Shown piece after piece: positions 45,752 through 64,000 of a stretch of DNA of 64,000 bases; position 1 is the stretch's first letter; the number at the start of each line of letters is the position of its first letter. The translations under genes were made by a program, and so were the position numbers. The stretch comes from Aliiglaciecola sp. LCG003 (lineage in GTDB: Bacteria > Pseudomonadota > Gammaproteobacteria > Enterobacterales > Alteromonadaceae), in the NCBI RefSeq assembly GCF_030316135.1, contig NZ_CP128185.1, positions 4,030,001 to 4,094,000 on the forward strand, read 5' to 3'. The notes beneath the pieces are model-generated. The model had not been told where the DNA came from. It ran no database searches and saw only the letters and a program-made list of their open reading frames with translations.

Positions 45752-45790
45752 TGTCAGTTGAAGCGCAAGACATAGACTCCAATCAACCCG

Positions 45791-46684: not shown

Positions 46685-46769
46685 TTAACATTACTCGATA
46701 CTAAAAAAGGGAGTCCACCCAATACTAAGCAAACTCCCCACTTTACACAACTCACTAAGCTAGGCTGGC

Positions 46770-47468
46770 CTACGCAGGTAAATCAAATAGCAATGCGCTA
46801 GCCGTTTGTGCTGAGTGATTGAACAACTCAAGAGCCGATTCTTGCTCTATTTTGGCGCCATCTCCTTGTTCGAGGCTTTCACCAACGACCGACATGGTAC
46901 CTTCGACTTGGTGCACGTAGTATTTTCGCCCCTCGTTGGCAGCAAAGGTAAGCGTCTCACCCGCCAACAAAATAATTTGATGCAAACGGCTATCTTGCTT
47001 AATTTTCAAGGTGCCATTTTCACCCGTAGGCGTGATAATAGTCGTAAGACCCGGGTTGTTACCAAACTGTTTTTGCTGATAGCCTGGCTCGCCGCCCTTC
47101 TCATTTGGTTCTATCCAAATCTGTAAAAAAGTTAACACGTCGGTTTTAGAACCGTTGTATTCGCTGTGCTGCACGCCGCGACCAGCTGACATCAGTTGGA
47201 ATTCACCTTTAGGCAAAGACTGCACATTCCCCATACTGTCTTTATGTTCAATTACGCCCTTGGTCACATAGCTAATAATCTCCATATCACGGTGCCCATG
47301 GGTGCCAAAACCTGCGCCTGCTGCTACAGCATCGTCGTTGATCACCCGCAAAACCGAAAACCCCATGTGTTGTGGATCATAATAGGAACCGAAAGAGAAA
47401 GTATGTTTACTGTCGAGCCAACCAAAATTGGCTTTACCGCGTTCACTGGCTTTTCTGAGCGTAATCAT
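46770..47468 (-). CDS. pirin family protein (YhhW-like quercetinase)
   Basis: This bicupin of 232 residues has the family's metal ligands in FGTHGHRDMEIISYV and GEFQLMSAGRGVQHSEYN (His, His, His, Glu). The sequence is closest to the YhhW type, which can oxidise quercetin in vitro; its natural substrate is unknown. The gene starts nine bases after doxX and precedes the LysR gene, all in one direction. Confidence 0.9.
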   Translation of the reverse strand: MITLRKASERGKANFGWLDSKHTFSFGSYYDPQHMGFSVLRVINDDAVAAGAGFGTHGHRDMEIISYVTKGVIEHKDSMGNVQSLPKGEFQLMSAGRGVQHSEYNGSKTDVLTFLQIWIEPNEKGGEPGYQQKQFGNNPGLTTIITPTGENGTLKIKQDSRLHQIILLAGETLTFAANEGRKYYVHQVEGTMSVVGESLEQGDGAKIEQESALELFNHSAQTASALLFDLPA

Positions 47469-47477
47469 TACAACCTC

Positions 47478-47927
47478 CTATGCATTAATTTTATCTGCGA
47501 TGAATTTATCAAATGCTAGCGTTCCTGAGCCTGAGAAGACTAAAGAAACGGAAGCAGCCAGCAGGGCTAAGGCATATTCATAGCCATTGTTAGACATAAA
47601 CAAACCATGTTGAAAATGTACGCTAAAAATAGCCACTAACATAGTGATCGCTAGTACTACTGACGACGGCCGAGTTAGCAATCCCAGCAATATAAATAAG
47701 CCACCGAAAAACTCGCCGCTACCGGCAAGCAATGCCATCAAATATCCTGGCTGCATGCCAATGGATGCCATCCATTGACCTGTACCTTCCAATCCATACC
47801 CACCAAAGGCACCAAATAATTTTTGCGCACCGTGGGCGATAAATATAATTCCAACCGGAACACGTAACGCCAATGGGCCAAACCCCGCATCAGAAGCCAA
47901 TACCTTTCCTAAAAATAATTTATTCAC
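47478..47927 (-). CDS. DoxX family membrane protein
   Basis: This four-helix membrane protein of 149 residues has the DoxX pattern (LALRVPVGIIFIAHGAQKLFG, FFGGLFILLGLLTR). The frame is open for 61 codons upstream, but GTG at 47927 is chosen: GAGG lies eight bases before it, and the upstream part looks non-coding. An ATG overlapping this site reads into an immediate stop. DoxX proteins are tied to thiosulfate or redox metabolism. It is first in a doxX-pirin-lysR run. Confidence 0.88.
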   Translation of the reverse strand: MNKLFLGKVLASDAGFGPLALRVPVGIIFIAHGAQKLFGAFGGYGLEGTGQWMASIGMQPGYLMALLAGSGEFFGGLFILLGLLTRPSSVVLAITMLVAIFSVHFQHGLFMSNNGYEYALALLAASVSLVFSGSGTLAFDKFIADKINA

Positions 47928-48040
47928 AACATAATCCTCAAAATTTTTGAACCAAAAAGCTTCACAACCCCATTTGAGAAGCTGCTTACTTACATTTATG
48001 ATGAGTATATTGATATTTTTAAGTAATCGAAATCGGACAA

Positions 48041-48061
48041 TTTTGAACTTTAAGTTCAAAA
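48041..48061. promoter_or_regulatory. 21-bp perfect palindrome upstream of doxX
   Basis: Ten-base arms TTTTGAACTT and AAGTTCAAAA surround a single central T. Located 114-134 bases before the doxX start. It fits the T-N11-A dyad of LysR sites (TTGAAC...GTTCAA), and a LysR gene closes this operon. Confidence 0.55.
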
Positions 48062-48236
48062 AATTTGAGCTAACTTCCACTCTATTCTCCATTGCTGGTA
48101 AATAGCCCATTGCAAGGAGAATTCAGCATCAAAATTCACTTTTAAAACTTGACGGTTAAAACCCACTAAACACGACAATTGTTCCAACCCATGACAGATG
48201 AATTGGTCAACTACTGTATGACTATTTATAGCTAAT

Positions 48237-48250
48237 TTGACCCTAGTCAA
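48237..48250. promoter_or_regulatory. FNR/CRP-type box upstream of the Arg/Asp-rich protein
   Basis: TTGACCCTAGTCAA, a perfect TTGAC/GTCAA dyad with 4-base spacer. A TTTTAT -10-like element (48274-48279) lies about 30 bases downstream, the spacing expected for a -41.5 activator site. The gene starts at 48330. Confidence 0.7.
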
Positions 48251-48329
48251 ATTGCAAAGCGTTAAATATGTGATTTTATCCTAAGACGTACGCACGCTAT
48301 TTTAGCTTTAATTACATCTGGAGATAACT

Positions 48330-48947
48330 ATGAAACACCAACATATTTCTTTAGCGATAGCAGCAGCCCTAGTAGTAAGCACCTCTTTACCTGCTTTTTC
48401 TCAAAATCAAAATCGAGACCGCGATACTGTTCGTCAAGTTGACCGAGAGCATCAATCAGATCGTGACCGAGAAGGAGATAGAGATCACGATAGAATTATG
48501 GACAGAGATGGCGATCAAGACAGAGATCGCGACAGAATAATGGATAGAGATGGAGATCAAGACCGAGAGCGCGACAGAGACAGGGACCGAGATCACGTTA
48601 ATGATGGTATGGGCGGTATGATATACGGTGCCGAAGCCATGACAGAACAAGAACGAAATCAATATAGAGAACAACTCAAATCAGCAACATCTGAGCAGCA
48701 ACGAAATCAAATTCGAATGGAGCATCAGCGGCGTATTCAGGCGAAACAACAAAATGACCCGCAGTTTGACGATGGCATTGGAGGTACTATTTTTGCTGGA
48801 AATCAAATGACTGAGCAAGAGCGTAATCGCTATAGAGAGCAGCTCAAATCAGCGACATCTGAACAACAGCGAAATCAGATTCGGATGGAGCATCAACAAC
48901 AAATGCAAAAACGTTTATCAGATAAATCTCCTTTAAATCAACCATAA
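48330..48947 (+). CDS. secreted Arg/Asp-repeat protein with duplicated C-terminal module
   Basis: This 205-residue exported protein has a signal peptide (cleavage near AFS-Q, residue 24-25). Residues about 28-90 are mostly Arg-Asp repeats including two MDRDGDQDRD units, resembling Asp-rich calcium-binding repeats. Then follow two near-identical 43-residue modules, each starting DG(M/I)GG and containing MTEQERN-YREQLKSATSEQ. No enzymatic motif is visible; a mineral, metal or polymer-binding role is a guess. A GGAG lies six bases before the ATG. The beta-barrel gene follows 13 bases later, so they form an operon. Confidence 0.75.
   Translation: MKHQHISLAIAAALVVSTSLPAFSQNQNRDRDTVRQVDREHQSDRDREGDRDHDRIMDRDGDQDRDRDRIMDRDGDQDRERDRDRDRDHVNDGMGGMIYGAEAMTEQERNQYREQLKSATSEQQRNQIRMEHQRRIQAKQQNDPQFDDGIGGTIFAGNQMTEQERNRYREQLKSATSEQQRNQIRMEHQQQMQKRLSDKSPLNQP
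48600..48896 (+). repeat. duplicated 129-bp coding module
   Basis: Two copies (48600-48728 and 48768-48896) encode the same 43-residue helical module with few changes, separated by a 13-codon linker. Nucleotide identity is also high in the central SATSEQQRNQIRMEHQ part, pointing to a recent internal duplication. Confidence 0.85.
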
Positions 48948-48960
48948 TTGGAGGTTTAAC

Positions 48961-49746
48961 ATGAATTCACTTCAGAACTCCTTCAAGGTTGCCCTGGCAG
49001 TTGCTCTTGTCTGCGGCAGCACCTGCAGTTTGGCCACAGATAATAATCTAATTTTTTCTACGGGTGCGGATTATTCAAATGGTGACTATGGAGGTGATCA
49101 AACGATTGAAGAATGGTATGTCCCCGTTACGCTAAAATATGTTGGAGATACGATGAGTTACGGAGTTACGATACCTTATCTTTCGGTGCGTGCGCCAAAA
49201 GGTACTGTGGTTACTGACACCGATGGACAGATTGTTATTGGTGGCGGTGAAAAACGCACCGAAAGTGGGATAGGAGACATTATCGGCCGAATAACCTTTT
49301 TTGACGTTTACAGAAATGATGATTTAGACATTGCAGTAGATTTAGGAGCAAAGATCAAACTCGGAACAGCAGACGAAGAAAAAGGCTTAGGAACGGGAAA
49401 AACAGACTATTCACTGCAAATTAATTTGTTTAAATTTTATGATGATTACTATCTCAGCGGTACCCTTGGATACAAAGTTAGAGGAGAGCCTGATGGATTA
49501 GACCTTGAAGACGTATGGTTTGGATCTGTAGGAGCGGTATATCTTTATTCAAGTAAAACAAAGGTAGGTCTAGCATTTGATTTTAGACAATCTTCTTTTT
49601 ATGATGGTGAACACATTCGCGAACTAAGTGCATTTGTTTATCATCGACTTGAAAATTCCTGGGGAATTTCGGCTTACTCTTATGCGGGCTTAAGTGACAG
49701 CAGTCCAGATTTTGGAATAGGAGTTTCTGTCAAATATTATTACTAG
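48961..49746 (+). CDS. putative outer-membrane beta-barrel protein
   Basis: This 261-residue protein has a signal peptide (cleavage near SLA-T) and a mature part made of alternating amphipathic strands. It ends in an aromatic residue (VSVKYYY), as outer-membrane barrels do. A glycine-rich GIGDIIGRITFF and strand pattern resemble the transporter-like family related to phenol MetA-type barrels. GGAGG precedes the ATG by six bases. It is co-transcribed with the Arg/Asp-repeat protein and may be its exporter or anchor, which is inference. Confidence 0.75.
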   Translation: MNSLQNSFKVALAVALVCGSTCSLATDNNLIFSTGADYSNGDYGGDQTIEEWYVPVTLKYVGDTMSYGVTIPYLSVRAPKGTVVTDTDGQIVIGGGEKRTESGIGDIIGRITFFDVYRNDDLDIAVDLGAKIKLGTADEEKGLGTGKTDYSLQINLFKFYDDYYLSGTLGYKVRGEPDGLDLEDVWFGSVGAVYLYSSKTKVGLAFDFRQSSFYDGEHIRELSAFVYHRLENSWGISAYSYAGLSDSSPDFGIGVSVKYYY

Positions 49747-49905
49747 TTTATTATTGTCATAATCAACATAATTGAGGGTTGTTAGAGCTTTAATTATTTA
49801 ACACCCCTCTATTCCCCGCCTTCATGTAAACTGACTTTATCCACCAGATGCTAGCCATTACTTTGATTTGCGAGGCTGGTTTTTAGCTGGCAAATTAAGC
49901 TAGCA

Positions 49906-51057
49906 TTAAAATAAGTATTCAGGTTTTAATAACAGTAATCCACCTAGCGCCAAAATAAAACAGCCACTAATTAATTTTAGCCAGCGTCCTTGTCGCTCAG
50001 ATAATTTGTATTTTTGTAAAGTAAATACCACAACACCCACCATCAATGCATCGTCAAAAATATAGGCCAGATTATACAACAGTAAATAGGCGTAATATTG
50101 CATGGGTTGCAATTGTTGCAAGGTTAAAACTTGGGTATATATTGCCGGTAACCCAGCGGTACAAATCAATTCAAGTAAGTTTACAAGTATTGCTACGACC
50201 ACCACTGCGAACAGCGCAGTGGATATATTTTTAGCCTGTACAATACCCCGCACTTTTTCATACAATCCTGCTTTTGATGATTCAGGGATCCCCAAGGTTA
50301 TACCCTGTTTGAAAGCAAAGTAGTCTTTAATATTTATACTTCCCACAATTAGTGCGACAAGTGCAATCACAACTTGGATGTTTCTTGAAATACCGATAAT
50401 CAGGAACAGGTTTAACCACGCGGCCATAAACGCAAAATATACCACGCCACTGACTATCACAAAGGTACCTGCAATCAAAAGCATACGTTTGCGATCTCTG
50501 ACGTTAACTAACAACGAAAGAAGAAACATCAGCACCCACATTGCGCAGGGGTTAAACCCATCTAGCAATCCTGTCATTAGCGTAAATAGCGGTAATCCAT
50601 ATTGTCCCGCCGTTATTTGGCCAATAAAAGGCAGGCTAATGGATTGCTCTGGATTGCTGTGCTGATTTAGCGGCGCTTTGCCAGCAAGATCGGTATGAAG
50701 AAGCAGATTATTCAGGGTAACAGACGGCTCAAAGCCAACCCAAAACTGCCCACAAGCATAAAACGAAGGTACCCCAGGCATATCTATTTGGTAACGAGTG
50801 TTAAGCCAGATAAAATGCTGTAAATTGTCCTGATTGTCTTCGACATCCCGCTTGACAACGGTTAGCTGAGGGTAAGTTTTCGCTATATCTTCAAGAAATT
50901 GATAGGCATCTTGGCAATGAGGACAGGATTTTTTTGAAAACACCTCAACGGTAAAACATTGATCTTGAGCTTTATAGTCAGTAGCTTGACTTTGCCCGCT
51001 AACTGGCAAAGGCATAATTAGACCAATTAAACTTCCCAAAATCAGCAATAATTTCAT
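49906..51057 (-). CDS. thioredoxin/glutaredoxin domain fused to a CcdA-like membrane domain
   Basis: This 383-residue envelope protein has a signal peptide, then a thioredoxin-fold domain with the dithiol motif SCPHCQDA near residue 44, and about six membrane helices from residue 155 on. The membrane part has NPCAMWVL and LICTAGLPAIYT, each with a Cys next to a membrane edge, as in CcdA/DsbD electron conduits. It probably moves electrons between cytoplasm and periplasm. It is transcribed away from polX, sharing a region with two FNR-type boxes. Confidence 0.8.
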   Translation of the reverse strand: MKLLLILGSLIGLIMPLPVSGQSQATDYKAQDQCFTVEVFSKKSCPHCQDAYQFLEDIAKTYPQLTVVKRDVEDNQDNLQHFIWLNTRYQIDMPGVPSFYACGQFWVGFEPSVTLNNLLLHTDLAGKAPLNQHSNPEQSISLPFIGQITAGQYGLPLFTLMTGLLDGFNPCAMWVLMFLLSLLVNVRDRKRMLLIAGTFVIVSGVVYFAFMAAWLNLFLIIGISRNIQVVIALVALIVGSINIKDYFAFKQGITLGIPESSKAGLYEKVRGIVQAKNISTALFAVVVVAILVNLLELICTAGLPAIYTQVLTLQQLQPMQYYAYLLLYNLAYIFDDALMVGVVVFTLQKYKLSERQGRWLKLISGCFILALGGLLLLKPEYLF

Positions 51058-51111
51058 TAGTGAGCTCTCACGAAAACCTCTCTAATAATAAGCAAGTATA
51101 TGTTCAATAAT

Positions 51112-51125
51112 TTGATCTCTATCAA
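51112..51125. promoter_or_regulatory. consensus FNR box (between thioredoxin-CcdA and polX genes)
   Basis: TTGATCTCTATCAA is a perfect match to the FNR consensus TTGAT-N4-ATCAA. On the minus strand a TATTAT element (51085-51090) lies about 29 bases from its centre, fitting activation of the thioredoxin-CcdA gene. Confidence 0.8.
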
Positions 51126-51156
51126 ATAGAAATAAACAGCATTTTTGACCTTTTCA

Positions 51157-51170
51157 TTGACGGCTATCAA
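51157..51170. promoter_or_regulatory. second FNR-type box in the same divergent region
   Basis: TTGACGGCTATCAA (TTGAY-N4-RTCAA), 45 bases centre-to-centre from the first box and on the polX side. The -10 candidates for polX are weak. Confidence 0.65.
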
Positions 51171-51205
51171 AAAAGTTTGCAGATAATCAGTTACTAAGGT
51201 GAACA

Positions 51206-52945
51206 TTGCTTACTTATAGTGACACAAACATGTTTGAACACAATTTACAAATTGCAAAAATATTCAATCAGATTGCAGATATTCTCAGTGTGGAAATCGA
51301 GAATAGCTATCGCGTAACGGCTTATCGTCGTGCAGCCAGATTTTTATCCGATTTTAAACAGGATATCAGGGCCTATGTGATACAGGGAAAAGATCTTAAA
51401 GCCTTACCCACTATCGGAGCTAGCTTGGCAAATAAGATTATCGAAATACTTGAAACCGAGTCGTGCAATACGCTCACCCAGTTACTAAGAGACGCTCCAC
51501 TTGGTTTAATTGATTTATTGCATATTCCTGGTTTGGGGCCCTCGCGCATTCATACTTTATACTATGAATTAGGTGTGCATACGCCTGAACAGTTATTAAG
51601 GGCGGCGAAAGACAACAAGGTACGGGAGCTTCCTGGCTTTGGGGTTAAAAGCGAAAAGACGCTTATCAATACCCTGGAAGCCAACCTGCGCAATAAACCA
51701 AGCTTCAAGCTAGCATTAGCAGCGACCTATGCTGAGCCATTGCTAGCTTATCTGCAGCAATCCGGGATTGTTGAAAATGTCATCATCGCGGGCAGCTATC
51801 GACGCCAGAAGGCCTGTATTCATGATATTGATATTCTAAGTTGCACCGAGCAACCTGAAAAGGTGATAGACAAATTGGTGCATTACCCTAAGGTGAGCCA
51901 AGTGCTATCGAAGGGCGCTAAGCGCTGCAGTGTTGTTCTGGAGCAAAAAATACAAGTTGATTTACGTACCATTGATAAAAATAGCTATGGCTCAGCGCTC
52001 TACCACTTTACTGGTTCAAAATCCCACAATATCGCGCTACGCCAGCGGGCAAAGCAACTTGGGCTTAAAATAAATGAATATGGCGTGTTCAAGGGGAGAA
52101 AGAAAATCGCCGGAAAAACGGAATCATCCATTCTAAAAGCCGTTAACTTACCGTGGATCCCAGCTGAATTGCGCGAGAATAATGGAGAAATTGAAGCGGC
52201 TGAGAAAAAACAACTGCCAGTGTTAGTTGATTTTAACCAACTTAAAGGTGACATGCATATTTGTCCAACGGTGCCACTCGATCATCAATATATCAACCAG
52301 ATGACAAGGCAAGCTAGCAAACAAAATTTCAACTTTTTAGGTTTGGCCCTAAGCGCACAGGCGGTTTTGAAGCACACAAAAACTGATCCATACTTCATTG
52401 ACCAACAGCTAGAATTAATTGACATTATTAATCAAACAAATAGCGTCACACTGTTAAAAACGTTACAGATAGGTATATTGGAAAATGGCACCTTTCCCAT
52501 GTCAGACTCCACCTTAGCTAAATTTGATGTTGTGATAGCCGTGATTGATGAGCATTTTAATTTGTCGCAAAAAAGGCAAACGGCAAGAATAGTAAAAGCG
52601 ATGGACAATCCGCATTTTTCTATATTGGCTCAACCAACTGGTGCACTGCTAAAAGAACGTGAAGCCTTCGATGCTGACATGTACAAAATCATCAAGCATG
52701 CTAGGCAACAAAGTTGTGCATTAGAGCTTAGCGCTCATCCTGATAGATTAGATCTTTCAGAATTATACTGCCAAATGGCCAAAAGTGAAGGCGTGAAAAT
52801 ATGCGTCAGTTCTTACGCACAACACGTCGCAGAGTTGAATTATTTATCCCTTGGCATTGGTCAAGCGAGACGCGGTTGGCTGGAAAAAGCAGACATTTTG
52901 AACACCTTATCTCTGCGCCAAATAAAACGATATCTAGGTAAATAA
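51206..52945 (+). CDS. family X DNA polymerase (PolX) with degenerate PHP domain
   Basis: This 579-residue protein has the layout of bacterial PolX: an N-terminal 8-kDa/HhH region (NSYRVTAYRRAARFLSDF), a second HhH near 108-120, a nucleotidyltransferase palm with Asp residues in HDIDIL and a third in QVDLRTI, then a C-terminal PHP-like region from about 345. The PHP motif HxH reads MHIC and the other metal ligands are largely lost, so 3'-5' exonuclease activity is doubtful. The TTG at 51206 has AAGG six bases upstream; ATG 51230 matches relatives better. Confidence 0.85.
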   Translation: MLTYSDTNMFEHNLQIAKIFNQIADILSVEIENSYRVTAYRRAARFLSDFKQDIRAYVIQGKDLKALPTIGASLANKIIEILETESCNTLTQLLRDAPLGLIDLLHIPGLGPSRIHTLYYELGVHTPEQLLRAAKDNKVRELPGFGVKSEKTLINTLEANLRNKPSFKLALAATYAEPLLAYLQQSGIVENVIIAGSYRRQKACIHDIDILSCTEQPEKVIDKLVHYPKVSQVLSKGAKRCSVVLEQKIQVDLRTIDKNSYGSALYHFTGSKSHNIALRQRAKQLGLKINEYGVFKGRKKIAGKTESSILKAVNLPWIPAELRENNGEIEAAEKKQLPVLVDFNQLKGDMHICPTVPLDHQYINQMTRQASKQNFNFLGLALSAQAVLKHTKTDPYFIDQQLELIDIINQTNSVTLLKTLQIGILENGTFPMSDSTLAKFDVVIAVIDEHFNLSQKRQTARIVKAMDNPHFSILAQPTGALLKEREAFDADMYKIIKHARQQSCALELSAHPDRLDLSELYCQMAKSEGVKICVSSYAQHVAELNYLSLGIGQARRGWLEKADILNTLSLRQIKRYLGK

Positions 52946-53059
52946 ATACTGCACTAGCACAACAAAATCAAGCTTCCTCACATTCCTTACGCTTATGGTA
53001 ACAATGGGACTTGTGAGTACCAAGAGCAAATTCCCGCTAAGTTGAAACACGTCAAAAAC

Positions 53060-53073
53060 ATGACCTCGGTCAA
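53060..53073. promoter_or_regulatory. FNR-type box upstream of the TrxC-like gene
   Basis: ATGACCTCGGTCAA differs from the TTGAC-N4-GTCAA dyad by one base. TATA-like hexamers follow at 53086-53098. It lies about 130 bases before the gene start. Confidence 0.5.
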
Positions 53074-53201
53074 ACCTGTTTCAGATATACACTATACCTT
53101 CATACCAACAAGCCGACGATACATCAGTCGAGCCTAGCGCCAAAAGCCTCTTTAGGTTGTTATCTAATAGCAGTTTAATTTGATTGATAGGACATAAGCA
53201 T

Positions 53202-53654
53202 ATGCGCGAAAAAACTCACTTAGTTTGTCCTGCATGTTGGTGCGTGAATCGTGTTCCACTGGCACTCGTTGAACACTCGCCAATGTGTGGAAGGTGTAAT
53301 ACCAAGTTATTTAATGGTAAACCGCTAAGCCTGTCGTCTTTGAATATCCTGATGTTTTTAGAGCGCAATGAAATGCCAATTGTGATCATTTTTTACGCCC
53401 CAAAAAGTGACCCAAAAAAGAATATATCTTTGTCTTATGATTTATGTGCTAGCTTTTTAGAGCCCTATATTCGGCTTGCAAAGGTAAATATTGATAAAGA
53501 CAAAGAACTGGCCTGGTTGCTAGGTGTAAAAACGACTCCCACTATCACAATATTTCATCATAACCACGAGGTTGCGCGTTCCAATTCGTTAGCAACAACC
53601 GAGGATATTGTTAAATGGGTGAAAGATTTTTCCTTGTCCGAATCAAAACCATGA
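53202..53654 (+). CDS. TrxC-like protein lacking the active-site cysteines
   Basis: This 150-residue protein has the thioredoxin-2 layout: an N-terminal zinc-ribbon with C9/C12 and C29/C32 (CPAC ... CGRC), then a thioredoxin fold with the cis-Pro loop (GVKTTPTITIF). The active-site WCGPC is replaced by KSDPK at 68-72, so both redox cysteines are gone. It cannot act as a normal disulfide reductase and may be a chaperone or binding protein. ATG 53202 is preferred over TTG 53184; AGGA lies about 10 bases upstream. Confidence 0.8.
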   Translation: MREKTHLVCPACWCVNRVPLALVEHSPMCGRCNTKLFNGKPLSLSSLNILMFLERNEMPIVIIFYAPKSDPKKNISLSYDLCASFLEPYIRLAKVNIDKDKELAWLLGVKTTPTITIFHHNHEVARSNSLATTEDIVKWVKDFSLSESKP

Positions 53655-53702
53655 AGTTTAAATATACCGAATGTAAAGTCACTGAATGCTAGCGTGGAAG
53701 AT

Positions 53703-53870
53703 ATGAATTTATTTATATTTACACAACAACTTCTTTTGACTGGGTGTTTGATTGGCTGGTTGATATTAGTACCCGCGAAGACCAAAAGAGGATTCTTGGT
53801 ACAGATCTTTATTACCGCCACAACATTTTGGGCAATGCTTTTTTTCACCACCGAGCTCATATCTCTGTAA
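53703..53870 (+). CDS. small two-helix membrane protein (55 residues)
   Basis: This short frame encodes M-NLFIFTQQLLLTGCLIG... with two hydrophobic stretches (about 8-24 and 31-48) separated by the basic turn PAKTKRG. GGA lies four bases before the ATG. No homologue is recognised. It sits between the TrxC-like gene and the FNR box ahead of the SAP gene, on the same strand. Coding status is uncertain: the evidence is the start site and the hydrophobic pattern. Confidence 0.45.
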   Translation: MNLFIFTQQLLLTGCLIGWLILVPAKTKRGFLVQIFITATTFWAMLFFTTELISL

Positions 53871-54043
53871 AATGAATGAGTTAAAAATCTTCGTTTTCCT
53901 TTATTTCCTATTGTTAAACCTAATCACCTATCAGCAAAACTAGGAGTTCCGAAAATCCCAACAATAACTTGACCGAAGTCAAATGTATTTGCCACATAAG
54001 CGCAATAATGTTCAATGATTAATGTGTTGATGGTGATCGAAAA
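53871..54043 (+). other. promoter region of the SAP-phosphoribosyltransferase operon
   Basis: AT-rich stretch holding an FNR-type box (53969-53982) and a -10-like AATAAT (54004-54009) with the expected spacing. No further gene is seen. Confidence 0.55.
53969..53982. promoter_or_regulatory. FNR-type box upstream of the SAP-domain gene
   Basis: TTGACCGAAGTCAA, a perfect TTGAC/GTCAA dyad. AATAAT begins about 29 bases from its centre, consistent with a class II activator position. The operon starts at 54044. Confidence 0.75.
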
Positions 54044-54247
54044 ATGAAAATAAAAGACATTACTGCGATAGCAAAAGAGCGTGGCATCTCTCGTACAAAA
54101 ATGAGTAAAACACGACTAATTAAGGCAATTCAATTAAATGAAGGTAACTTCGACTGTTTTGCGACCGCGCAATCGGGAATCTGTGACCAGCTCGATTGTA
54201 TTTGGCGTTCTGATTGCTTTGACTCAGCAAAAGGTAAAGTACATTGA
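54044..54247 (+). CDS. small SAP-domain protein with four conserved cysteines
   Basis: A 67-residue protein: residues 1-30 form a SAP/Rho-N-like helix pair (MKIKDITAIAKERGIS, KTRLIKAIQ) followed by NFDCFATA, GICDQLDC and SDC. The four Cys (38, 47, 52, 58) may bind metal. Small proteins of this design occur in many anaerobic or metal-respiring bacteria; function is unknown. Its stop overlaps the TTG start of the downstream phosphoribosyltransferase by four bases. Confidence 0.75.
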   Translation: MKIKDITAIAKERGISRTKMSKTRLIKAIQLNEGNFDCFATAQSGICDQLDCIWRSDCFDSAKGKVH

Positions 54248-54924
54248 TACAACAACATAAAAACAACTCCAAGGAAACTATATCATTACCTTTCGTAAAT
54301 AGGGGAGAAGCAGGTAGATTATTGGCAAAGCAACTCATGTCCCATGCTGGCCGCCCTGACACCCTAGTGCTTGCATTGCCTCGTGGCGGACTGCCAGTCG
54401 CCTTTGAGGTAGCTCAAGCGCTGACGGCTCCACTTGATATTATTTTAGTGCGTAAAATATCAGCCCCATACCAAAGCGAACTCGCGATAGGCGCCGTTGC
54501 CGAAGGAGGAATATTCTTTGCTAATTCTTCACTAATTGAATCTCTTGGAGTCAGCGAGCGCGAACTGAACCATCAAAAAAGACTCGCGGAAGATGAATTA
54601 AGTAGGCGTACAAAATTATATCGAGGTAGATCAACCGCACCGGATATACATGACAAAGTGGTCATTTTGGTTGATGACGGCCTCGCAACTGGAGCGACTA
54701 TGTTAGCCGCAATTTCCTCGCTGAAATTACAACTGGCCAGGCAAATTGTAATCGCAGTTCCGGTGGCGTCAGATTCGGCTCTGCAACAGGTAGAAAAGCA
54801 AGTTGATGAAGTCATATGCTTGGCTGTTCCGGAGATGTTTCAAGCTGTAGGTAATTGGTATCAGTCTTTTCCCCAACTCAACGATGAACAGGTGCTAAGT
54901 TACTTAACTAGGCGCAGTAGCTGA
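54244..54924 (+). CDS. phosphoribosyltransferase family protein
   Basis: This 226-residue type I PRTase fold has the PRPP-binding loop VVILVDDGLATGATM near residue 140 and an N-terminal ALPRGGLPVAFEVA segment. Similar stand-alone PRTases are often found in oxygen-limitation or dormancy regulons; the substrate is unknown. The start is TTG at 54244, overlapping the SAP gene stop (TTGA); no ATG is available before the conserved region, so translation is probably coupled. Confidence 0.82.
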   Translation: MIQQHKNNSKETISLPFVNRGEAGRLLAKQLMSHAGRPDTLVLALPRGGLPVAFEVAQALTAPLDIILVRKISAPYQSELAIGAVAEGGIFFANSSLIESLGVSERELNHQKRLAEDELSRRTKLYRGRSTAPDIHDKVVILVDDGLATGATMLAAISSLKLQLARQIVIAVPVASDSALQQVEKQVDEVICLAVPEMFQAVGNWYQSFPQLNDEQVLSYLTRRSS

Positions 54925-55229
54925 ACATACAGCAGACTATCATCTGCTTAATAATAGATTCGCGCAATTGCGTTGCCGGTTATTGCAAGTCATTTACAAG
55001 CTCTTTATTAGCGTTTTGATAAGAAAGCCCTGTCTTTTCCACAACATACAATTGCTATATAGTTGAGTAAATTGATGTAGGTCAACTATCTGCTGAGCAA
55101 AGTAAATTATGATACTTGTTCCAATCGTTACACTATTTGAGCAGTTAATTGAGTTAAGCTGAAAAATTAAGAACAACTCAATCTGTGGATAAATGGTGTT
55201 GTCACTCATTATATCTGGAGTGTCAAATT
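54925..55229 (+). other. promoter region of the NarL-type regulator
   Basis: About 305 bases without a credible gene. It holds an FNR-type box (55072-55085) and a good -10 element. The transcript leader would be about 110 bases long. Confidence 0.55.
55072..55113 (+). promoter_or_regulatory. FNR-type box with class II promoter for the regulator gene
   Basis: TTGATGTAGGTCAA (55072-55085) is followed by TATGAT at 55108-55113. The -10 begins 29.5 bases from the box centre, which places the box at about -41.5, the classic FNR class II position. Confidence 0.8.
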
Positions 55230-55883
55230 ATGGAACAAACCAAAAAACAAGTGTTTGTGATAGATGACCATGAACTAGTACGACAAGGGTTAAAACAACT
55301 AATAAACGGTGAGCCGGATCTGCAAGTTTGCGCAGAAGCCGCCAGTGTGAAAGAAGTATCCAAGTTAAAAAAAACAGTGAAACCCGATCTAGCTATTGTT
55401 GATATATCCTTACCTGATGGTAATGGACTTGACTTAGTCAAACAATTGCGCCGCTGGCGTCCCGCAATGCCCATCATAGTGCTGTCAATGCATGATGATG
55501 AATTATTTGCCGAACGGGCTCTGAATTTTGGTGCGCTTGCTTATATTAACAAGCAAAATTCGGCGGAAAAATTACTTATAGGAATAAGAGAAGTCCTCAA
55601 CAATAAAATTTACGTTAGTTCCTTGATTAACGAGAGGTTACTCAGAAGGATTACCGGTAAAACTGATTGTACTTCCCTGTCCCCATTAACGTCTTTATCA
55701 GATCGAGAGTTGCAAGTGTTCGAAGGCATAGGTCGATGCAAAAAAACTAAAGTTATTGCTGCAGATCTGAATCTTAGCATTAAAACAATTGAGACATATA
55801 AAAGTAATATTAAAAGAAAGCTGAATTTACAATCCGGCGAGGAATTAACTCGGGCCGCCATTCTGTGGTCAGTAGAAAGTTGA
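55230..55883 (+). CDS. NarL/FixJ-family response regulator
   Basis: A 217-residue regulator: receiver domain with IDDHE at 11-15, phospho-acceptor D58 in LAIVDISLPDG and a Lys in YINKQ, then a LuxR-type HTH (LSDRELQVFEGIGRCKKTKVIAADLNLSIKTIETYKSNIKRKL). ATG 55230 is preferred, with GGAG nine bases upstream; an in-frame upstream ATG would add 15 unrelated residues. The HisKA_3-type kinase encoded next is its likely partner. Confidence 0.9.
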   Translation: MEQTKKQVFVIDDHELVRQGLKQLINGEPDLQVCAEAASVKEVSKLKKTVKPDLAIVDISLPDGNGLDLVKQLRRWRPAMPIIVLSMHDDELFAERALNFGALAYINKQNSAEKLLIGIREVLNNKIYVSSLINERLLRRITGKTDCTSLSPLTSLSDRELQVFEGIGRCKKTKVIAADLNLSIKTIETYKSNIKRKLNLQSGEELTRAAILWSVES

Positions 55884-55970
55884 TAATAGATCATAATAAG
55901 TTTCCTACTTTGTGGTGCTCTGGGTGGATAAAAGTGGCATTATTAATTAGTCTCCATAGTTAAAGTTGAA

Positions 55971-58900
55971 ATGCCGTTTATGCCGAATCAAGAAAATAGA
56001 TCACCCGTAGCTGTTGTTGGCATTGGCGCGTCCGCTGGTGGTCTGGAGGCATTTACAACATTTTTCCAAAACATGCCAAATGACTCCCATATTGCATTTG
56101 TTTTACTCCCCCATTTAGCCCCAGATCACCCTAGCATTCTAACCTCTTTGATTGCTAAGCAAACTAGCTTAAGAGTAAATACAATTGTTAATAATATGCC
56201 TCTGCTAGGAGACAATGTATATGTCCTGCCACCGGGCAAGCAACTGAGCGTTAAAAATGGGCTGCTTCAACTTAAATCTATAGACCAAAACGAACAGCAG
56301 TGGTTGTTAATTGATCGCTTTTTCACTTCAATGGCAATTGCATATGGCGAGCGCTGTATTGCAATAATCATGTCTGGGACAGGTAATCACGGCACCTTAA
56401 GTTTCGAAGAAATAAAATTAGCAGGTGGAATGATCATTGCGCAAGATCCGCAAACCACGAAATTTAGCCAAATGCCAGAATGTGCAATTGATACAGGCTT
56501 AGTTGACATGGTGCTTGCTCCGGAAAAAATGCCTTCTACCATATTGAGTTACATAAGCCATCCCTATCTAAATATTACTGGCAAAAATGAGACTCTATTA
56601 GTCAATGAAAATATCTCGCCGATTTTAGAAATACTTAAGTCAGTTGTGAAATATGATTTTAGCGGCTACCGTAAAAACATGCTGCTAAGGAGGATCCAGC
56701 GGCGCATGCATGTAACCGACAGTGCTACTATTAGCGAATATACTCACTACTTATCCAATCACCCTAATGAAGCAAATGCCTTAAGCAATGAATTATTAAT
56801 AGGTGTGACTGCATTTTTTCGTGACAAAGACGCCTTTTCGGTACTCGAGGAAAGGGTGATACCTGATTTGGTGAGCAACAAAAAAAATGGGGATTCAATT
56901 AGAATTTGGGTACCTGCCTGTTCAAGTGGGGAAGAGGTTTATAGTCTTGCTATATTAATTTGTGAAGAAATCGAAAAGCAGCAAAAAGAGTTAGCTATTC
57001 ATATTTTTGCCAGTGATATCGATAAAGCATCGTTAAATCGCGCCCGTCGAGGCACATACTCCTATGAGGCAATGTCACGAATATCTTCAAGCCGACGGCA
57101 ACGTTTTTTTCAAAAGACAGATGACAACAGGTATCAAATAATTAATTCTTTACGTGAAAATATAGTGTTTGCCTGTCAAAATATTATTGCAGATGCGCCA
57201 TTTTCACGGCTCGACTTAATAAGTTGCCGGAACTTTTTAATCTACTTGCAACCAGAACTCCAAAGAAAAGTACTGGACGTGTTTCACTTTTCCTTGAATC
57301 CACAAGGTTATTTAGTTTTAGGCCCTTCTGAGTCACTTGGGCAACATAGTGAAAACTATCAAGTTATCTCCAAAAAATGGCGGATATTTCAACATGTCGC
57401 CACGAGCAAAAAGAAGCCATTCAATTTGCTGTTAAATGGCGCATTTACCTCATTATCTGGAATTGGAATGGAAGAAAGTCGAACGAAATCATATTTACCT
57501 ACAAATTTTGCCAATTTGTTTCAACGTGAATTGATTGATGCTTACGCCCCCGCTGCAGTGCTGATCAATCGCGCTTATCATATACTGCAATTTCATGGGC
57601 CTGCATCTGACTATCTCGAGTTTCCAAAAGGTGCACCTTCTAATGATCTTTTAACATTGCTCAGAGATGGCTTACGCACTCGAGTACGAACAGCTGTTCA
57701 TCGTGCCATTGAAGATAAAAGTACCTATATAGATAGTGATGCAAGAGTTAAAATTGAAGGTCATTACAAGCCTTGTATCTTAACTGTTAGACCGATTTCC
57801 GACTCCCGTAATAACGAGCAATACTTCTTAATTACCTTTGAAAAAAAGCAGCCACTGAAGATTGACGGTTCGCCATTTGCTGATTCTGCTGAAGTATCCC
57901 TTACTGGCTCTCAGGAAACTAACAAGATTATTGAACAACTTGAGTATGAATTAAATGCCACAAGCGATGAGCTGCAAACATCGATTGCAGAGTTAGAGCA
58001 ATCTAATGAAGATTTAAAGTCTTCAAACGAAGAAGTTATGTCAATGAACGAGGAGCTGCAATCTGCCAATGAAGAATTAGAAACTTCTAAAGAAGAGTTG
58101 CAGTCTATGAATGAAGAGCTCAATACGGTTAATACTGAACTTGTTTGGAAAGTTGAAGAACTCGAAAAAAGTCACGACCATGTTAATAACCTTCTCAGTA
58201 GTACCGATATAGCCACACTCTTTCTGGATATAGATATGCGAATTATCTTGTTTAATCCAGTGACGACCCAGTTACTCAGTTTACAAAAAAATGATATAGG
58301 TCGGCAGATTAGTGACTTTTCTTTTAAATTTGAGGATAAGAGTTTGCTGGATGATTGCAGGCAGGTTATTCAAAATTTATCAGCGATAGATCGTGAAGTA
58401 TCTTTACAACGCGGAGGAGTCGATGACCAGAAAATATTTTTGCGGCGTATTGTGCCCTATCGTACCGCTAAAAATCAGATTGAAGGTGTTGTAGTCACCT
58501 TTACTGATGTCACCCATTTGCACAACCAGCGACGGGAACTTGAGAAAAAGGTTGCGGAGAAAACCAAGGAACAATATTTATACCAAGAGAGCCTCAAGTC
58601 TATTATGCAAGTTGCCTTTGAAGGGCTTATTGTATTAGACAAGCAGGGAATAATTACCGATTTCAATGTGGCCGCAGAGAGTACCTTTGGCTATGCTCAC
58701 AGTGAAATCATTGGTAAGCCACTTAGCCAGTTATTCAGTGAAAAAGACACCTATTCGCTGAATCACTTTTTTCGATCAACAAATAAACGCAAATTTCCTC
58801 GAGAATTTACCGGATGTTGTAAAAATGGCAGGCAAATCCCACTGGATTTATTGATCGCTAAGATTGACGATACGGGTTCTTATTTGGCTACTGTGCAAGA

Positions 58901-59537
58901 TTTGACTGAACAAAAAGCCTTAAAAAAAGCGATCGTCGATATTAGCTCCTACGAACAGGAAAAAATTGGAATTGAATTACATGATAGTTTAGGCCAAAAA
59001 TTAACCGGTATTAGCTTGCTTGCAGGAAATCTCAAACGCCAAATTAATAATGGGGCTGGCGACCTAGGCACGAATATTGATCACATCGTTGGCCAGTTGA
59101 GCAATACAATTGGTGATATTCGCAACATTTGCCATGGACTCGCGCCTTTGACCTTTAACCCACAGGGTTTACCAGTTGCATTAAGTGCACTGACCAACCA
59201 AATTGAGCAAGCTGGTTTATTGGCAAGTTTCAAATGTGACCCTAGGGTCAAAATCAAAGAACGTGTGGTAGCAATTCAATTTTACCGAATCGCTCAGGAG
59301 GCGACTAATAATGCGATTAAGTACGCAAATGCCACTGAAATTGATCTAGAAGTATCCTATAACGAGGGCCGCCCAGCCCTATCTATACGAGACAATGGAA
59401 AAGGGTTTGATGTTGGCAAACAACTTAACCAAGGGGGAATTGGCCTTAAAATTATGCGTTATAGGGCATCTGCCATTAATGCTCGTTTAGAAATAAGCTC
59501 TACAAAAAAAGGCACTGAAATTAGCTGCAGACTATAG
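55971..59537 (+). CDS. CheB-CheR-PAS-PAS-HisKA_3 fusion histidine kinase
   Basis: This 1188-residue protein starts with a CheB methylesterase-like domain (1 to about 195: S21 in GASAGG, H48 in PHLAPDH). The catalytic Asp position of GTGxDG is H140. A CheR methyltransferase domain follows (about 215-480, ACSSGEE SAM loop). Then come an Asn/Glu-rich coiled coil (about 650-720), two PAS domains (about 735-855 and 875-985), and a NarX/UhpB-type HisKA_3 kinase with H1004 in LHDSLGQKL and HATPase (DNGKGF). It follows a NarL-type regulator that it probably phosphorylates. No receptor or chemotaxis gene is near. Confidence 0.9.
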   Translation: MPFMPNQENRSPVAVVGIGASAGGLEAFTTFFQNMPNDSHIAFVLLPHLAPDHPSILTSLIAKQTSLRVNTIVNNMPLLGDNVYVLPPGKQLSVKNGLLQLKSIDQNEQQWLLIDRFFTSMAIAYGERCIAIIMSGTGNHGTLSFEEIKLAGGMIIAQDPQTTKFSQMPECAIDTGLVDMVLAPEKMPSTILSYISHPYLNITGKNETLLVNENISPILEILKSVVKYDFSGYRKNMLLRRIQRRMHVTDSATISEYTHYLSNHPNEANALSNELLIGVTAFFRDKDAFSVLEERVIPDLVSNKKNGDSIRIWVPACSSGEEVYSLAILICEEIEKQQKELAIHIFASDIDKASLNRARRGTYSYEAMSRISSSRRQRFFQKTDDNRYQIINSLRENIVFACQNIIADAPFSRLDLISCRNFLIYLQPELQRKVLDVFHFSLNPQGYLVLGPSESLGQHSENYQVISKKWRIFQHVATSKKKPFNLLLNGAFTSLSGIGMEESRTKSYLPTNFANLFQRELIDAYAPAAVLINRAYHILQFHGPASDYLEFPKGAPSNDLLTLLRDGLRTRVRTAVHRAIEDKSTYIDSDARVKIEGHYKPCILTVRPISDSRNNEQYFLITFEKKQPLKIDGSPFADSAEVSLTGSQETNKIIEQLEYELNATSDELQTSIAELEQSNEDLKSSNEEVMSMNEELQSANEELETSKEELQSMNEELNTVNTELVWKVEELEKSHDHVNNLLSSTDIATLFLDIDMRIILFNPVTTQLLSLQKNDIGRQISDFSFKFEDKSLLDDCRQVIQNLSAIDREVSLQRGGVDDQKIFLRRIVPYRTAKNQIEGVVVTFTDVTHLHNQRRELEKKVAEKTKEQYLYQESLKSIMQVAFEGLIVLDKQGIITDFNVAAESTFGYAHSEIIGKPLSQLFSEKDTYSLNHFFRSTNKRKFPREFTGCCKNGRQIPLDLLIAKIDDTGSYLATVQDLTEQKALKKAIVDISSYEQEKIGIELHDSLGQKLTGISLLAGNLKRQINNGAGDLGTNIDHIVGQLSNTIGDIRNICHGLAPLTFNPQGLPVALSALTNQIEQAGLLASFKCDPRVKIKERVVAIQFYRIAQEATNNAIKYANATEIDLEVSYNEGRPALSIRDNGKGFDVGKQLNQGGIGLKIMRYRASAINARLEISSTKKGTEISCRL

Positions 59538-59617
59538 TAGTTCGTCAGGATGTAGCACGGCTTTGCATGCCAAACCTGAAAGCGCTCAGATTTGGTTTTG
59601 GATTCACGGATGATTTT

Positions 59618-60373
59618 TCAGCCAGTTTTATCCTGTAAAATTCTATCCATGCAGATTCGTTTCAAGCTATCCATATCAAGAATTTCAATGGTTCTGTGGT
59701 TAACTCTAATAATATTTTCACATTGTAGCTTATTGAGTTGCCTACTAGCTGTTTCGATAGCCATGCCCAAATAATTCCCGAGATCTCTGCGTGTCATACT
59801 CAGCGAAAACCTATTATTTTTCAATCCTTCAGCACTTGCAGCATCGGATTGACTGAGTAAAAATGCGGCTAATCGTTGCTCGGCATTGTGATTATTTAAG
59901 TCTAACCTTGTATAATATTCAGTCACTAACGCATGGCTAATTTTTTGCAGCAATTGTTTACCTGAATCTTCCGATTCACCTAATACATTATGTAAACTAT
60001 TAGCATCAATAAAACATATACAACTGGTTTCTAGAATACTAGCCTGGCATGCGTGAACTCCTCGATCGAAGCCATCAAATCCGACTAAATCATTCGGTCT
60101 AAGAAAAGCAGAAACCTGTTCTTCTCCATCAGCGGTAATGATACTGGTTTTGGCTGAGCCGGAATGTAAAATATATAATCCTCTAAAATCATCCCCAGGA
60201 GAGAATAAAACTTCGCGTCGATGATATATTCTCTGAACTGGTTTAATTGAAGATAATATAAAGCCAGTTCGACTACTTGGCAGAGGAGCAACTGATGACT
60301 TGCATGGACAGACACTTTTTATAACACAATTCTGGCATGCTTTAGTTTGTCTAAGCGGTATTATTCTCGACAT
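59618..60373 (-). CDS. FNR-family oxygen-sensing transcriptional regulator
   Basis: This 251-residue Crp/Fnr regulator has C13-x2-C16-x5-C22 at the N-terminus (the exact FNR spacing, plus C24) and C120 at the position of FNR C122, so a 4Fe-4S cluster is likely. A cyclic-nucleotide-type beta-barrel (about 35-150) leads to a C-terminal HTH MTRRDLGNYLGMAIETASRQL, whose E-x2-SR matches FNR's DNA-reading residues for TTGAT half-sites. It is probably the regulator of the FNR-type boxes in this island. E. coli-type Fnr itself could be elsewhere in the genome. Confidence 0.88.
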   Translation of the reverse strand: MSRIIPLRQTKACQNCVIKSVCPCKSSVAPLPSSRTGFILSSIKPVQRIYHRREVLFSPGDDFRGLYILHSGSAKTSIITADGEEQVSAFLRPNDLVGFDGFDRGVHACQASILETSCICFIDANSLHNVLGESEDSGKQLLQKISHALVTEYYTRLDLNNHNAEQRLAAFLLSQSDAASAEGLKNNRFSLSMTRRDLGNYLGMAIETASRQLNKLQCENIIRVNHRTIEILDMDSLKRICMDRILQDKTG

Positions 60374-60706
60374 TGTAATTTCCTGTTACTGACTATCATC
60401 AGCTCCTTAAGGAATTGATGACAACAATCCGGATTCAAATAATGACAAAACTAATTCACTTTGTTTATAGGGGATTACCTGATGGGCTTATAGTCAAACG
60501 CACATTTTTCGCACAACCTTAGAGTTGGTGACTTACATGGACAGGCACCTTTAGCTTACATTTTGACTTACATGGACAGGCACCTTTAGCTTACATTTTG
60601 ACTTAAATACTTGCATGGACGGCATGTTAATAAGAGCTCAAACGTTCTGAAAATTCACTCAAATAGCAAGAGATGCCTTGTACTTGAATTACCTAAAAAG
60701 GCTAGG
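60374..60706. other. intergenic region with tandem repeats upstream of the FNR-family gene
   Basis: A 333-base gap on a stretch transcribed leftwards. It holds the 35-bp tandem repeat described separately and AT-rich sequence near 60400-60470 that should contain the FNR-family promoter. No FNR box with correct spacing was found here, and no open frame is credible. Confidence 0.5.
60529..60618. repeat. 35-bp tandem repeat related to the FNR-family gene 5' end
   Basis: Two identical 35-bp units run 60529-60563 and 60564-60598, with a diverged partial third unit to about 60618. The unit contains GACTTACATGGACAGGCAC. A similar 23-bp stretch (20 of 23 bases) occurs inside the neighbouring FNR-family gene at 60297-60319, in the codons for its Cys-rich Lys-x2-Cys-Pro-Cys-Lys segment. 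Confidence 0.85.
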
Positions 60707-63136: not shown

Positions 63137-63158
63137 CCAAATAGCTTGTCATGACTCG

Positions 63159-64000
63159 CTATTCACTCATTGCATCTGCAGCGGACTGAAGATAATTTCT
63201 GATAATTTTAAATTCTGACCGAATTAACGGCAGTAAATCGGCCCAACGTTGTTGCTCTGCTGAACGGTGAACATAATCTTTGCCTAAAAGATCTGTGTAT
63301 ATTTTCAAAGCCGCTTTGGTACTATTTTCAATTGAAAATTGGTTCGCAGTTTTAATGGCTGCCTGTTTGTATTGAAGATTATTTTGTTCCAACTGAGCTT
63401 TGAAAAGAAGTAACTCCTTGGCGAAAACATGGTAATTAATATTGGTATCTAGCAGACGCCCATTAACATTATCAATCACCACCTCGCGTACCCCAGGTGC
63501 ATCCAACGCAAAAACCGGCACTGATGCCGCCATCGCTTCTGTAATCACCATGCCTTGGGTCTCACTTTTAGACGCAAAAACAAACAAGTCTAGCGCACGA
63601 TAAGCACTGGCAAGCAAAGGTTGTTCTAAAAACCCTAAACTGTGGACTTGAGCCATTACATCAGCGTGTAAAAACCAATCCATCATTTTGGATTGTAAAT
63701 CGCCAGAGCCAACCAATAAAAAGTGTATTTGTTTATTTTTTTGCATCGCTTGAATCAAGGCTTGAGACAAATATTTTAGGTTTTTCTCTGCTGCAAGACG
63801 TCCTATATGGCCCACTAAAAATACATTTTCAGGTATACCCATTGCAGCTCTAAACCCATTCCCACTTCCTACTGAGAAAGCCTTAACGTTGACGCCTGTA
63901 GGAACAACACAGATTGATGCAGTAACACCTCTTTGGGCCAGCACCTCGGCAATACTCTGACTGGGTGCAATAACGGCATCACACATATTTGCATATGCAG
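63159..64000 (-). CDS. glycosyltransferase family 4-type (partial, cut by window edge)
   Basis: The C-terminal 280 or so residues of a GT-B glycosyltransferase. It has AVIAPSQSIAEVL, VVPTGVNVKAFSVG, VGHIGRLAAEKNLKYL, the DVMAQVHSLGFLEQP segment and E-x7-E (SKSETQGMVITEAMA) that binds the nucleotide sugar. The frame is open to position 64000, so the N-terminal Rossmann half is beyond the window, and the ATG at 63986 is internal. It lies upstream of the phosphodiesterase-EEP fusion on the same strand, which suggests a lipid or polysaccharide pathway. Confidence 0.9.
   Translation of the reverse strand, partial: AYANMCDAVIAPSQSIAEVLAQRGVTASICVVPTGVNVKAFSVGSGNGFRAAMGIPENVFLVGHIGRLAAEKNLKYLSQALIQAMQKNKQIHFLLVGSGDLQSKMMDWFLHADVMAQVHSLGFLEQPLLASAYRALDLFVFASKSETQGMVITEAMAASVPVFALDAPGVREVVIDNVNGRLLDTNINYHVFAKELLLFKAQLEQNNLQYKQAAIKTANQFSIENSTKAALKIYTDLLGKDYVHRSAEQQRWADLLPLIRSEFKIIRNYLQSAADAMSE

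What the first reader, a model, noticed from the sequence alone, without database searches (positions are those of the whole stretch)
48237..60373. FNR-type box cluster defines a candidate low-oxygen/redox regulon
Six near-identical dyads (TTGAY-N4-RTCAA: 48237, 51112, 51157, 53060 with one mismatch, 53969, 55072) fall in five consecutive intergenic gaps over 7 kb. For the exact pattern about one in 262,000 positions is expected by chance, so five exact hits here are not random. At 55072 a TATGAT sits at the classic -41.5 geometry, and 53969 and 51112 have -10-like elements with similar spacing. A FNR-family gene with all four cluster cysteines and the FNR recognition helix ends the island. 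The controlled genes are poorly described: an Arg/Asp-repeat secreted protein, a thioredoxin-CcdA fusion, a decayed PolX, a cysteine-less TrxC, a SAP protein with a PRTase, and a NarL regulator with a CheB-CheR kinase.
Basis: partly seen in the sequence, partly recalled or inferred. Interest (0 to 1): 0.78.

Follow-up and report, generated by a model that had tools for sequence, protein, structure and literature searches.

The report
Low-oxygen gene island with FNR boxes
A stretch of DNA missing from this bacterium's close relatives carries stress and repair genes whose promoters bear the binding site of an oxygen-sensing switch, plus an extra copy of that switch, so it looks like an acquired kit for life with little oxygen.

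Summary
All five exact TTGAY-N4-RTCAA sites of the 64-kb window lie at 48237-55085 (0.41 expected by shuffles), each upstream of a gene start. They are the densest 7-kb cluster among 87 genome sites; 22 of 20,000 random placements reach five. Promoter-positioned sites have -10-like hexamers 31-32 bp from the box centre, as in class II FNR activation; coding sites do not.

Corrections: the FNR gene does not end the island and has no clear box itself. The accessory region starts near 48.1 kb, after a DoxX gene conserved in congeners, and spans up to about 33 kb, past the window, with two more boxed units. PolX lost only its PHP motifs; its polymerase triad is kept. The regulator belongs to a second FNR clade apart from the genome's canonical FNR; examined members sit among FNR boxes. 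Boxes recur upstream of some PolX, PRTase and SAP-type homologs in the class.

New member of a known kind: an FNR/FixK-type low-oxygen island. Oxygen control and the acting FNR paralog are inferred.

The parts
48237..48250 (.). FNR-type box TTGACCCTAGTCAA upstream of the RD-repeat gene (box centre about 86 bp from ATG)
   Evidence: aligned box in G010; poor -10
48330..48947 (+). Arg/Asp-repeat protein with an apparent signal peptide (by eye), 205 aa; only weak family matches below cut-off
   Evidence: 46% homolog in G010
48961..49746 (+). probable outer-membrane protein (by eye), 261 aa, likely one operon with the above; no Pfam or NCBIfam match at E <= 0.001
   Evidence: 60% homolog in the same arrangement in G010
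49906..51057 (-). thioredoxin/glutaredoxin-like domain (CPHC) plus hydrophobic C-terminal half, 383 aa
   Evidence: C-terminal half not matched by Pfam
51085..51090 (-). -10-like TATTAT at distance 31 from box 51112, towards the thioredoxin gene
51112..51125 (.). FNR-type box TTGATCTCTATCAA in the divergent gap thioredoxin/PolX
51157..51170 (.). FNR-type box TTGACGGCTATCAA, about 67 bp from a likely PolX ATG at 51230 (start chosen by eye)
51206..52945 (+). family-X DNA polymerase with polymerase Asp triad kept and PHP ligand motifs lost
53042..53073 (.). two adjacent one-mismatch dyads (53042 TTGAAACACGTCAA, 53060 ATGACCTCGGTCAA)
53184..53654 (+). TrxC-like protein without the active-site CxxC; N-terminal zinc-ribbon-type cysteines kept
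53703..53870 (+). small predicted membrane protein, 55 aa (frame read by eye)
   Evidence: read
53969..53982 (.). FNR-type box TTGACCGAAGTCAA, 68 bp upstream of the gene at 54044; AATAAT at distance 31
54044..54247 (+). 67-aa four-cysteine protein, weak Rho_N-like N-terminus (below cut-off); matched in 54 of 369 class genomes, this one included
   Evidence: exact box upstream in 2 of 29 homologs
54244..54924 (+). phosphoribosyltransferase (PF00156), overlapping the preceding gene
   Evidence: exact box upstream in 5 of 29 homologs
55072..55085 (.). FNR-type box TTGATGTAGGTCAA upstream of the response regulator
55108..55113 (+). -10-like TATGAT at distance 32 from the box centre
55185..55883 (+). 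NarL/FixJ-type response regulator
55971..59537 (+). CheB-CheR-PAS-HisKA_3 sensor kinase, 1188 aa
59618..60373 (-). FNR2-clade regulator with CxxCx5C plus fourth Cys and ETASR helix; best dyad in its own upstream gap scores only 4.9 bits
60707..63136 (-). phosphodiesterase plus endonuclease/exonuclease/phosphatase fusion, last of a minus-strand gene run whose first gene (VTT domain) has a box at G000:C1:4097479, outside the window
63159..64000 (-). glycosyltransferase group 1 in the same run; continues past the window end

Best explanation
From about 48.1 kb onward the window holds a horizontally variable accessory region whose transcription units carry FNR-class activator sites, mostly at class II promoter positions (shown by sequence). 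When oxygen falls, an FNR-family protein with its iron-sulfur cluster intact binds these sites and switches the units on (inferred). The cargo points to envelope, thiol, DNA-repair and nucleotide-salvage functions plus a two-component system (annotation), that is, survival under low oxygen or a redox shift (inferred). The region includes an FNR2-clade regulator gene (shown), which probably shares control with the chromosomal canonical FNR (inferred; which one dominates is open).
For: Five exact sites, all in this segment, 0.41 expected; genome-maximum cluster. Sites in the start-bearing gaps and not in the others. -10-like hexamers at distance 31/32, sites picked by a fixed rule (start 40-140 bp from the box): island 10 orientations, mean 3.8 of 6 matches against 2.71 at random distances (9 of 20,000 draws as high; 8 inside the window alone 3.62, 128 of 20,000); 21 other promoter-positioned orientations 3.76 against 2.55 (0 of 20,000); 90 coding orientations 2.26 against 2.28. 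Box upstream of the RD-repeat/OMP pair aligned in G010. Congener DNA matches stop at window 48,074; the next conserved gene lies about 33 kb on. FNR2 clade at 100/100; FNR2 neighbourhoods box-rich in G000, G002 and G010, that of canonical FNR not. Exact box near the start of 6 of 56 PolX against 20 of 620 other frames; of 5 of 29 PRTase and 2 of 29 SAP-type homologs, 0.04 expected each.
Against: No expression or binding data. Only 3 of 8 site-orientations inside the window have at least 4 of 6 -10 matches; 48237 is poor and 51157 weak. The FNR gene has no clear box of its own, and the G010 segment with the shared genes has no FNR gene in the 35 kb read, so local control is not conserved there. 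The PolX/box association rests on 6 loci, 3 of one genus, one (L086) inside another called frame. Most PolX, PRTase and SAP-type homologs examined have no exact box.
Confidence: 0.78

Rival explanations
1. The island is run wholly by the genome's canonical FNR; the FNR2 gene is a passenger or serves another signal.
For: Canonical FNR is present and an FNR-family match is found in 55 of 60 related genomes, this one included; the G010 segment has boxes without an FNR gene in the 35 kb read; other promoter boxes of the genome have the same geometry.
Against: FNR2-clade genes repeatedly lie in box-rich neighbourhoods; island boxes have more TTGAC half-sites (9 of 14) than other promoter-positioned boxes (8 of 36; p 0.008), hinting at a different preference.
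Confidence: 0.4
2. The boxes are sites for another CRP/FNR-family member or act mainly in repression, so the units do not form an oxygen regulon.
For: CRP/FNR-family motifs overlap (recalled); the genome has five HTH_Crp_2 proteins above the Pfam cut-off; the C paralog lacks the N-terminal cysteines.
Against: The -10 spacing favours activation; two of the three FNR-like paralogs of this genome keep all four cysteines and all three carry the ExxSR helix.
Confidence: 0.12
3. Chance clustering of dyads without function.
For: 45 of 86 classified genome sites are in coding DNA.
Against: 0 of 100 shuffles reach five, 22 of 20,000 placements reach this cluster, placement in start-bearing gaps, -10 spacing, one site aligned across genera.
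Confidence: 0.03

Closest known systems
FNR/Anr regulons of Gammaproteobacteria
   Same: Box like TTGAT-N4-ATCAA (the Anr motif quoted in PMC6588701, passage seen), class II geometry (recalled), four-cysteine FNR protein with ETxSR helix.
   Different: Boxes concentrated in one accessory region with its own second-clade FNR; a word search of PMC6588701 found 0 occurrences of polymerase or thioredoxin.
FixLJ-FixK2 microoxic regulon of Bradyrhizobium diazoefficiens
   Same: Low-oxygen set with universal stress, CBS-domain and DnaJ-type proteins (table passages of PMC6515984); similar genes lie near FNR boxes in G000 and relatives (names partly by reading).
   Different: Here the kinase is a CheB-CheR-PAS fusion with a NarL-type regulator and the FNR keeps the cysteine set; cargo of PolX, RD-repeat and OMP genes.
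DosR dormancy regulon of mycobacteria (recalled)
   Same: Hypoxia set of Usp, CBS, Hsp20 and PRTase genes with a NarL-type regulator (recalled).
   Different: Different regulator and boxes; an analogy of gene content only, not tested.
Bacterial family-X DNA polymerase (PDB 3AU2)
   Same: Aligned over residues 13-574 at E 1.4e-99; polymerase Asp triad kept.
   Different: PHP ligand motifs lost; of 56 relatives aligned (two rows the same contig) only L022 shows comparable loss.

Membership tests
FNR-class oxygen-sensing regulator (window 59618-60373) | CxxCx5C plus fourth cysteine aligned to the cluster ligands of a solved FNR | tested here: met
   (which residues are ligands is recalled)
FNR-class oxygen-sensing regulator (window 59618-60373) | DNA-recognition helix E-x-x-S-R | tested here: met
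   ETASR
FNR-class oxygen-sensing regulator (window 59618-60373) | oxygen-labile [4Fe-4S] cluster and anaerobic DNA binding | not testable with these tools
   needs protein chemistry
Canonical Fnr (NCBIfam NF008365) | score above the curated cut-off; grouping with canonical FNR | tested here: not met
   155 bits against a cut-off of 228; separate clade at 100/100
FNR regulon (class II activated promoters) | TTGAT-like dyad upstream of gene starts | tested here: met
FNR regulon (class II activated promoters) | -10 element about 31-32 bp from the box centre | tested here: met
   as a set: island mean 3.8 against 2.71, 9 of 20,000 draws; individually 5 of 10 island orientations (3 of 8 in the window) and 14 of 21 others have at least 4 of 6 matches
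FNR regulon (class II activated promoters) | induction on oxygen limitation dependent on FNR | not testable with these tools
   no expression data
Horizontally variable genomic island | absent from congeners between conserved flanks | tested here: met
   no DNA match beyond window 48,074 in 7 congeners searched (G005 not searched) apart from 71-142 bp fragments within the kinase gene in three; SDR gene 3.5 kb from DoxX in G004, 9.8 kb in G001, about 33 kb in G000, not seen in the G006 stretch
Horizontally variable genomic island | integrase, att repeats or tRNA at the edge | tested here: inconclusive
   no tRNA in the window; a gene that looks like a REP transposase (recalled) at G000:C1:4097669; att repeats not searched
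PolX (PHP-containing family-X polymerase) | polymerase catalytic Asp triad | tested here: met
PolX (PHP-containing family-X polymerase) | PHP metal-ligand motifs | tested here: not met
   motifs changed in the window protein, kept in G010

The most novel reading that the evidence does not exclude
A second FNR clade in this family travels with, or nucleates, box-tagged cargo islands and, through a shifted half-site preference (TTGAC over TTGAT), forms a partly insulated second oxygen-response channel beside canonical FNR: a portable plug-in low-oxygen regulon.
Probability: 0.25. Interest if true: 0.65.

Novelty: new member of a known kind. Interest (0 to 1): 0.45.

Why it matters
It would show how oxygen-responsive control can be gained as a block: cargo genes arriving with ready-made activator sites and a spare sensor-regulator. 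It also links family-X DNA polymerase, a PRTase and a small four-cysteine protein to FNR boxes in some gammaproteobacterial lineages, a link I did not find in the searches, and it gives a testable case of specificity divergence between FNR paralogs.

Tried and rejected
Rejected: chance clustering. Rejected as sole proof: the reversed-pattern control (10 against 87); it is lenient because 45 of 86 classified sites are coding, so I relied on placement and -10 spacing. Rejected: a fully decayed PolX. The genome-contig scan with PolX gave only four distant relatives, none with an exact box in the 3.7-21.7 kb held. The PolX/box association across the class is weak (p 0.015; 4 of 60 loci dropped as partial or at a contig edge). 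The first -10 tests used sites I picked by hand (17 other orientations, mean 4.18; 8 island, 4.0; 1 of 20,000); on review I repeated them with a fixed rule, which lowers the island value to 3.8 (9 of 20,000) and is the one I cite. The half-site comparison was repeated likewise: 9 of 14 against 7 of 30, p 0.017, by hand; 9 of 14 against 8 of 36, p 0.008, by rule; the five window sites alone against the hand set gave p 0.052; coding sites have 32 of 90. Papers: listings; passages only of PMC6515984, PMC6588701 and PMC11539149; the last lists a PolX/PHP protein among raised proteins and, in the passage seen, does not tie it to FNR. In some searches the 55-aa membrane protein was entered out of frame, and the 67-aa protein too, so their absence from those hits means nothing.
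Full report
What was checked. The window is G000:C1:4030001-4094000 of a 4.41-Mb single-contig genome with 87 exact sites, against 10 for the reversed pattern. Thirty-four relatives hold 11 to 88 sites with controls of 0 to 38, the count above its control in each. Of 86 sites classified (1172847 had no fetched stretch with enough flank) 45 lie in coding frames, 24 between genes and 17 within 200 bp of the start of a called frame, some of these frames spurious. The window cluster is the densest: five in 7 kb, next four at 1.669 Mb; 22 of 20,000 uniform placements reach five.

Promoter anatomy. With a matrix from 22 hand-picked promoter sites (the five window sites among them, so their scores are partly by construction), each start-bearing gap between 48.1 and 55.2 kb has a site of 12.7 bits or more, while the 3'-3' and short intra-operon gaps, and the gap upstream of the FNR gene (best 4.9 bits), do not. 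In a first look a TATAAT-like hexamer stood out at 31 bp from the box centre (mean weighted score 3.92 against about 2.0 at other distances, 25 orientations). The distance was fixed after seeing that peak, but it is also what -41.5 geometry predicts (recalled). With sites chosen by a fixed rule, best of distances 31/32: island 3.8 of 6 (10 orientations, two of them outside the window), other promoter-positioned sites 3.76 (21), coding sites 2.26 (90), the rest 2.66 (32); random-distance draws reach these values in 9, 0, 12,387 and 760 of 20,000; the 8 orientations inside the window alone give 3.62, 128 of 20,000. The clear island cases are 51112 on the minus strand, 53969, 55072, and outside the window 4097479 and 4099777; 48237 is poor and 51157 weak.

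The accessory region. With window 44,000-63,900 as DNA query, seven congeners match up to at most window 48,074 and not beyond, apart from 71-142 bp fragments within the kinase gene in G003, G007 and G008; G003 matches only to about 45,681. The response-regulator, kinase, LysR, pirin and DoxX genes left of the boundary are conserved in order in G006 and, with insertions, in G004. The next conserved gene on the right is an SDR gene at 81.4 kb in window coordinates continued past the end: 3.5 kb from DoxX in G004, 9.8 kb in G001, not seen in the 20-kb stretch of G006. G+C falls from 0.44-0.47 to 0.37-0.44 at 48 kb. Beyond the window the region holds a boxed VTT-domain gene heading the minus-strand run that includes the fusion gene at 60707, and a boxed CBS-domain gene.

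The regulators. The genome has five HTH_Crp_2 proteins above the Pfam cut-off. The canonical FNR is at 2219951; an FNR-family match is found in 55 of 60 related genomes. The window FNR aligns to a solved FNR-type regulator (5CVR) over residues 13-240 with the four cluster cysteines matched. In a 28-row tree it falls with the C paralog of the same genome and proteins of G030, G002, G007 and G010 in a clade of six at 100/100, apart from 22 other rows; its branch is long and its place inside the clade is at 88/74. C, G010 and G007 lack the N-terminal motif; the window protein, G030 and G002 have it; the fourth cysteine was not recovered by my pattern in G030 and G007. Exact sites within 10 kb: 7 for the window FNR (one coding), 5 for C, 1 for canonical FNR. 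G002 has 5 and G010 4 in 19.9 kb (Poisson 8e-6 and 3e-4); G030 has 2; the G007 neighbourhood was not read. Genes around these FNR2 loci look like Usp, D-lactate dehydrogenase, cytochrome c, GlgC and PAS-kinase/response-regulator genes (names by reading and similarity, not profile-tested).

Comparative evidence for the cargo. PolX matches: 0 of 8 congeners and 2 of 60 relatives with this genome, 2 of 394 in the order, 60 of 369 in the class, this genome counted each time. G010 carries the OMP (60%), RD-repeat protein (46%) and PolX (50%) with exact boxes at L028 4065, 7016, 12168 and 16734, and a fifth (8522) in a coding frame; the 7016 box aligns with the window's 48237 box. Among 56 usable of 60 PolX loci, 6 have an exact box near the start against 20 of 620 other frames (p 0.015), three of them one genus. 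Of the 29 best other PRTase loci (78 genomes matched, this one included) 5 have an exact box within 300 bp, one of them 235 bp away, shuffles 0.04; of the 29 best other SAP-type loci (54 genomes matched) 2, shuffles 0.04.

PolX. The polymerase Asp residues are kept; the PHP motifs that carry metal ligands (recalled) are changed throughout, while G010 keeps them; of 56 relatives aligned only L022 shows comparable loss.

Reading. The sequence supports an FNR-activated low-oxygen module in an acquired region that includes its own FNR2. Oxygen control and the identity of the acting FNR are inferences. The kind is known (FNR, Anr and FixK regulons; passages of PMC6588701 and PMC6515984). FNR2-linked islands and an FNR-boxed PolX were not found in the searches.

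Noticed in passing
G000:C1:2303000-2330000 (L032, L033): Second box-rich region with the FNR2 paralog that lacks N-terminal cluster cysteines, and genes that read as CBS, Usp, D-lactate dehydrogenase, formate dehydrogenase and a second ATP synthase operon.
   Followed up: partly
G000:C1:1660000-1679000 (L031): Four exact boxes in 2.8 kb around genes that read as cytochrome b561, small cytochrome c and GlgC.
   Followed up: partly
G000:C1:3404376 and 3405239 (L155): Boxes upstream of genes that read as Hsp20 and a glycine-zipper lipoprotein (not profile-tested).
   Followed up: no
window 51206-52945: PolX with polymerase triad kept and PHP ligand motifs lost; only L022 of 56 aligned relatives is comparable.
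   Followed up: partly
L201, L202, L203: FNR2 genes lie divergently from PAS-kinase genes (with FixJ-like regulators in L201 and L202), a FixLJ-FixK-like arrangement; in L201 an exact box lies 75 bp upstream of FNR2 itself.
   Followed up: partly
L030 5836-9622 (outside the window): Gene run of glutathione-synthetase, MATCAP and N-formylglutamate amidohydrolase families with a one-mismatch box upstream.
   Followed up: no
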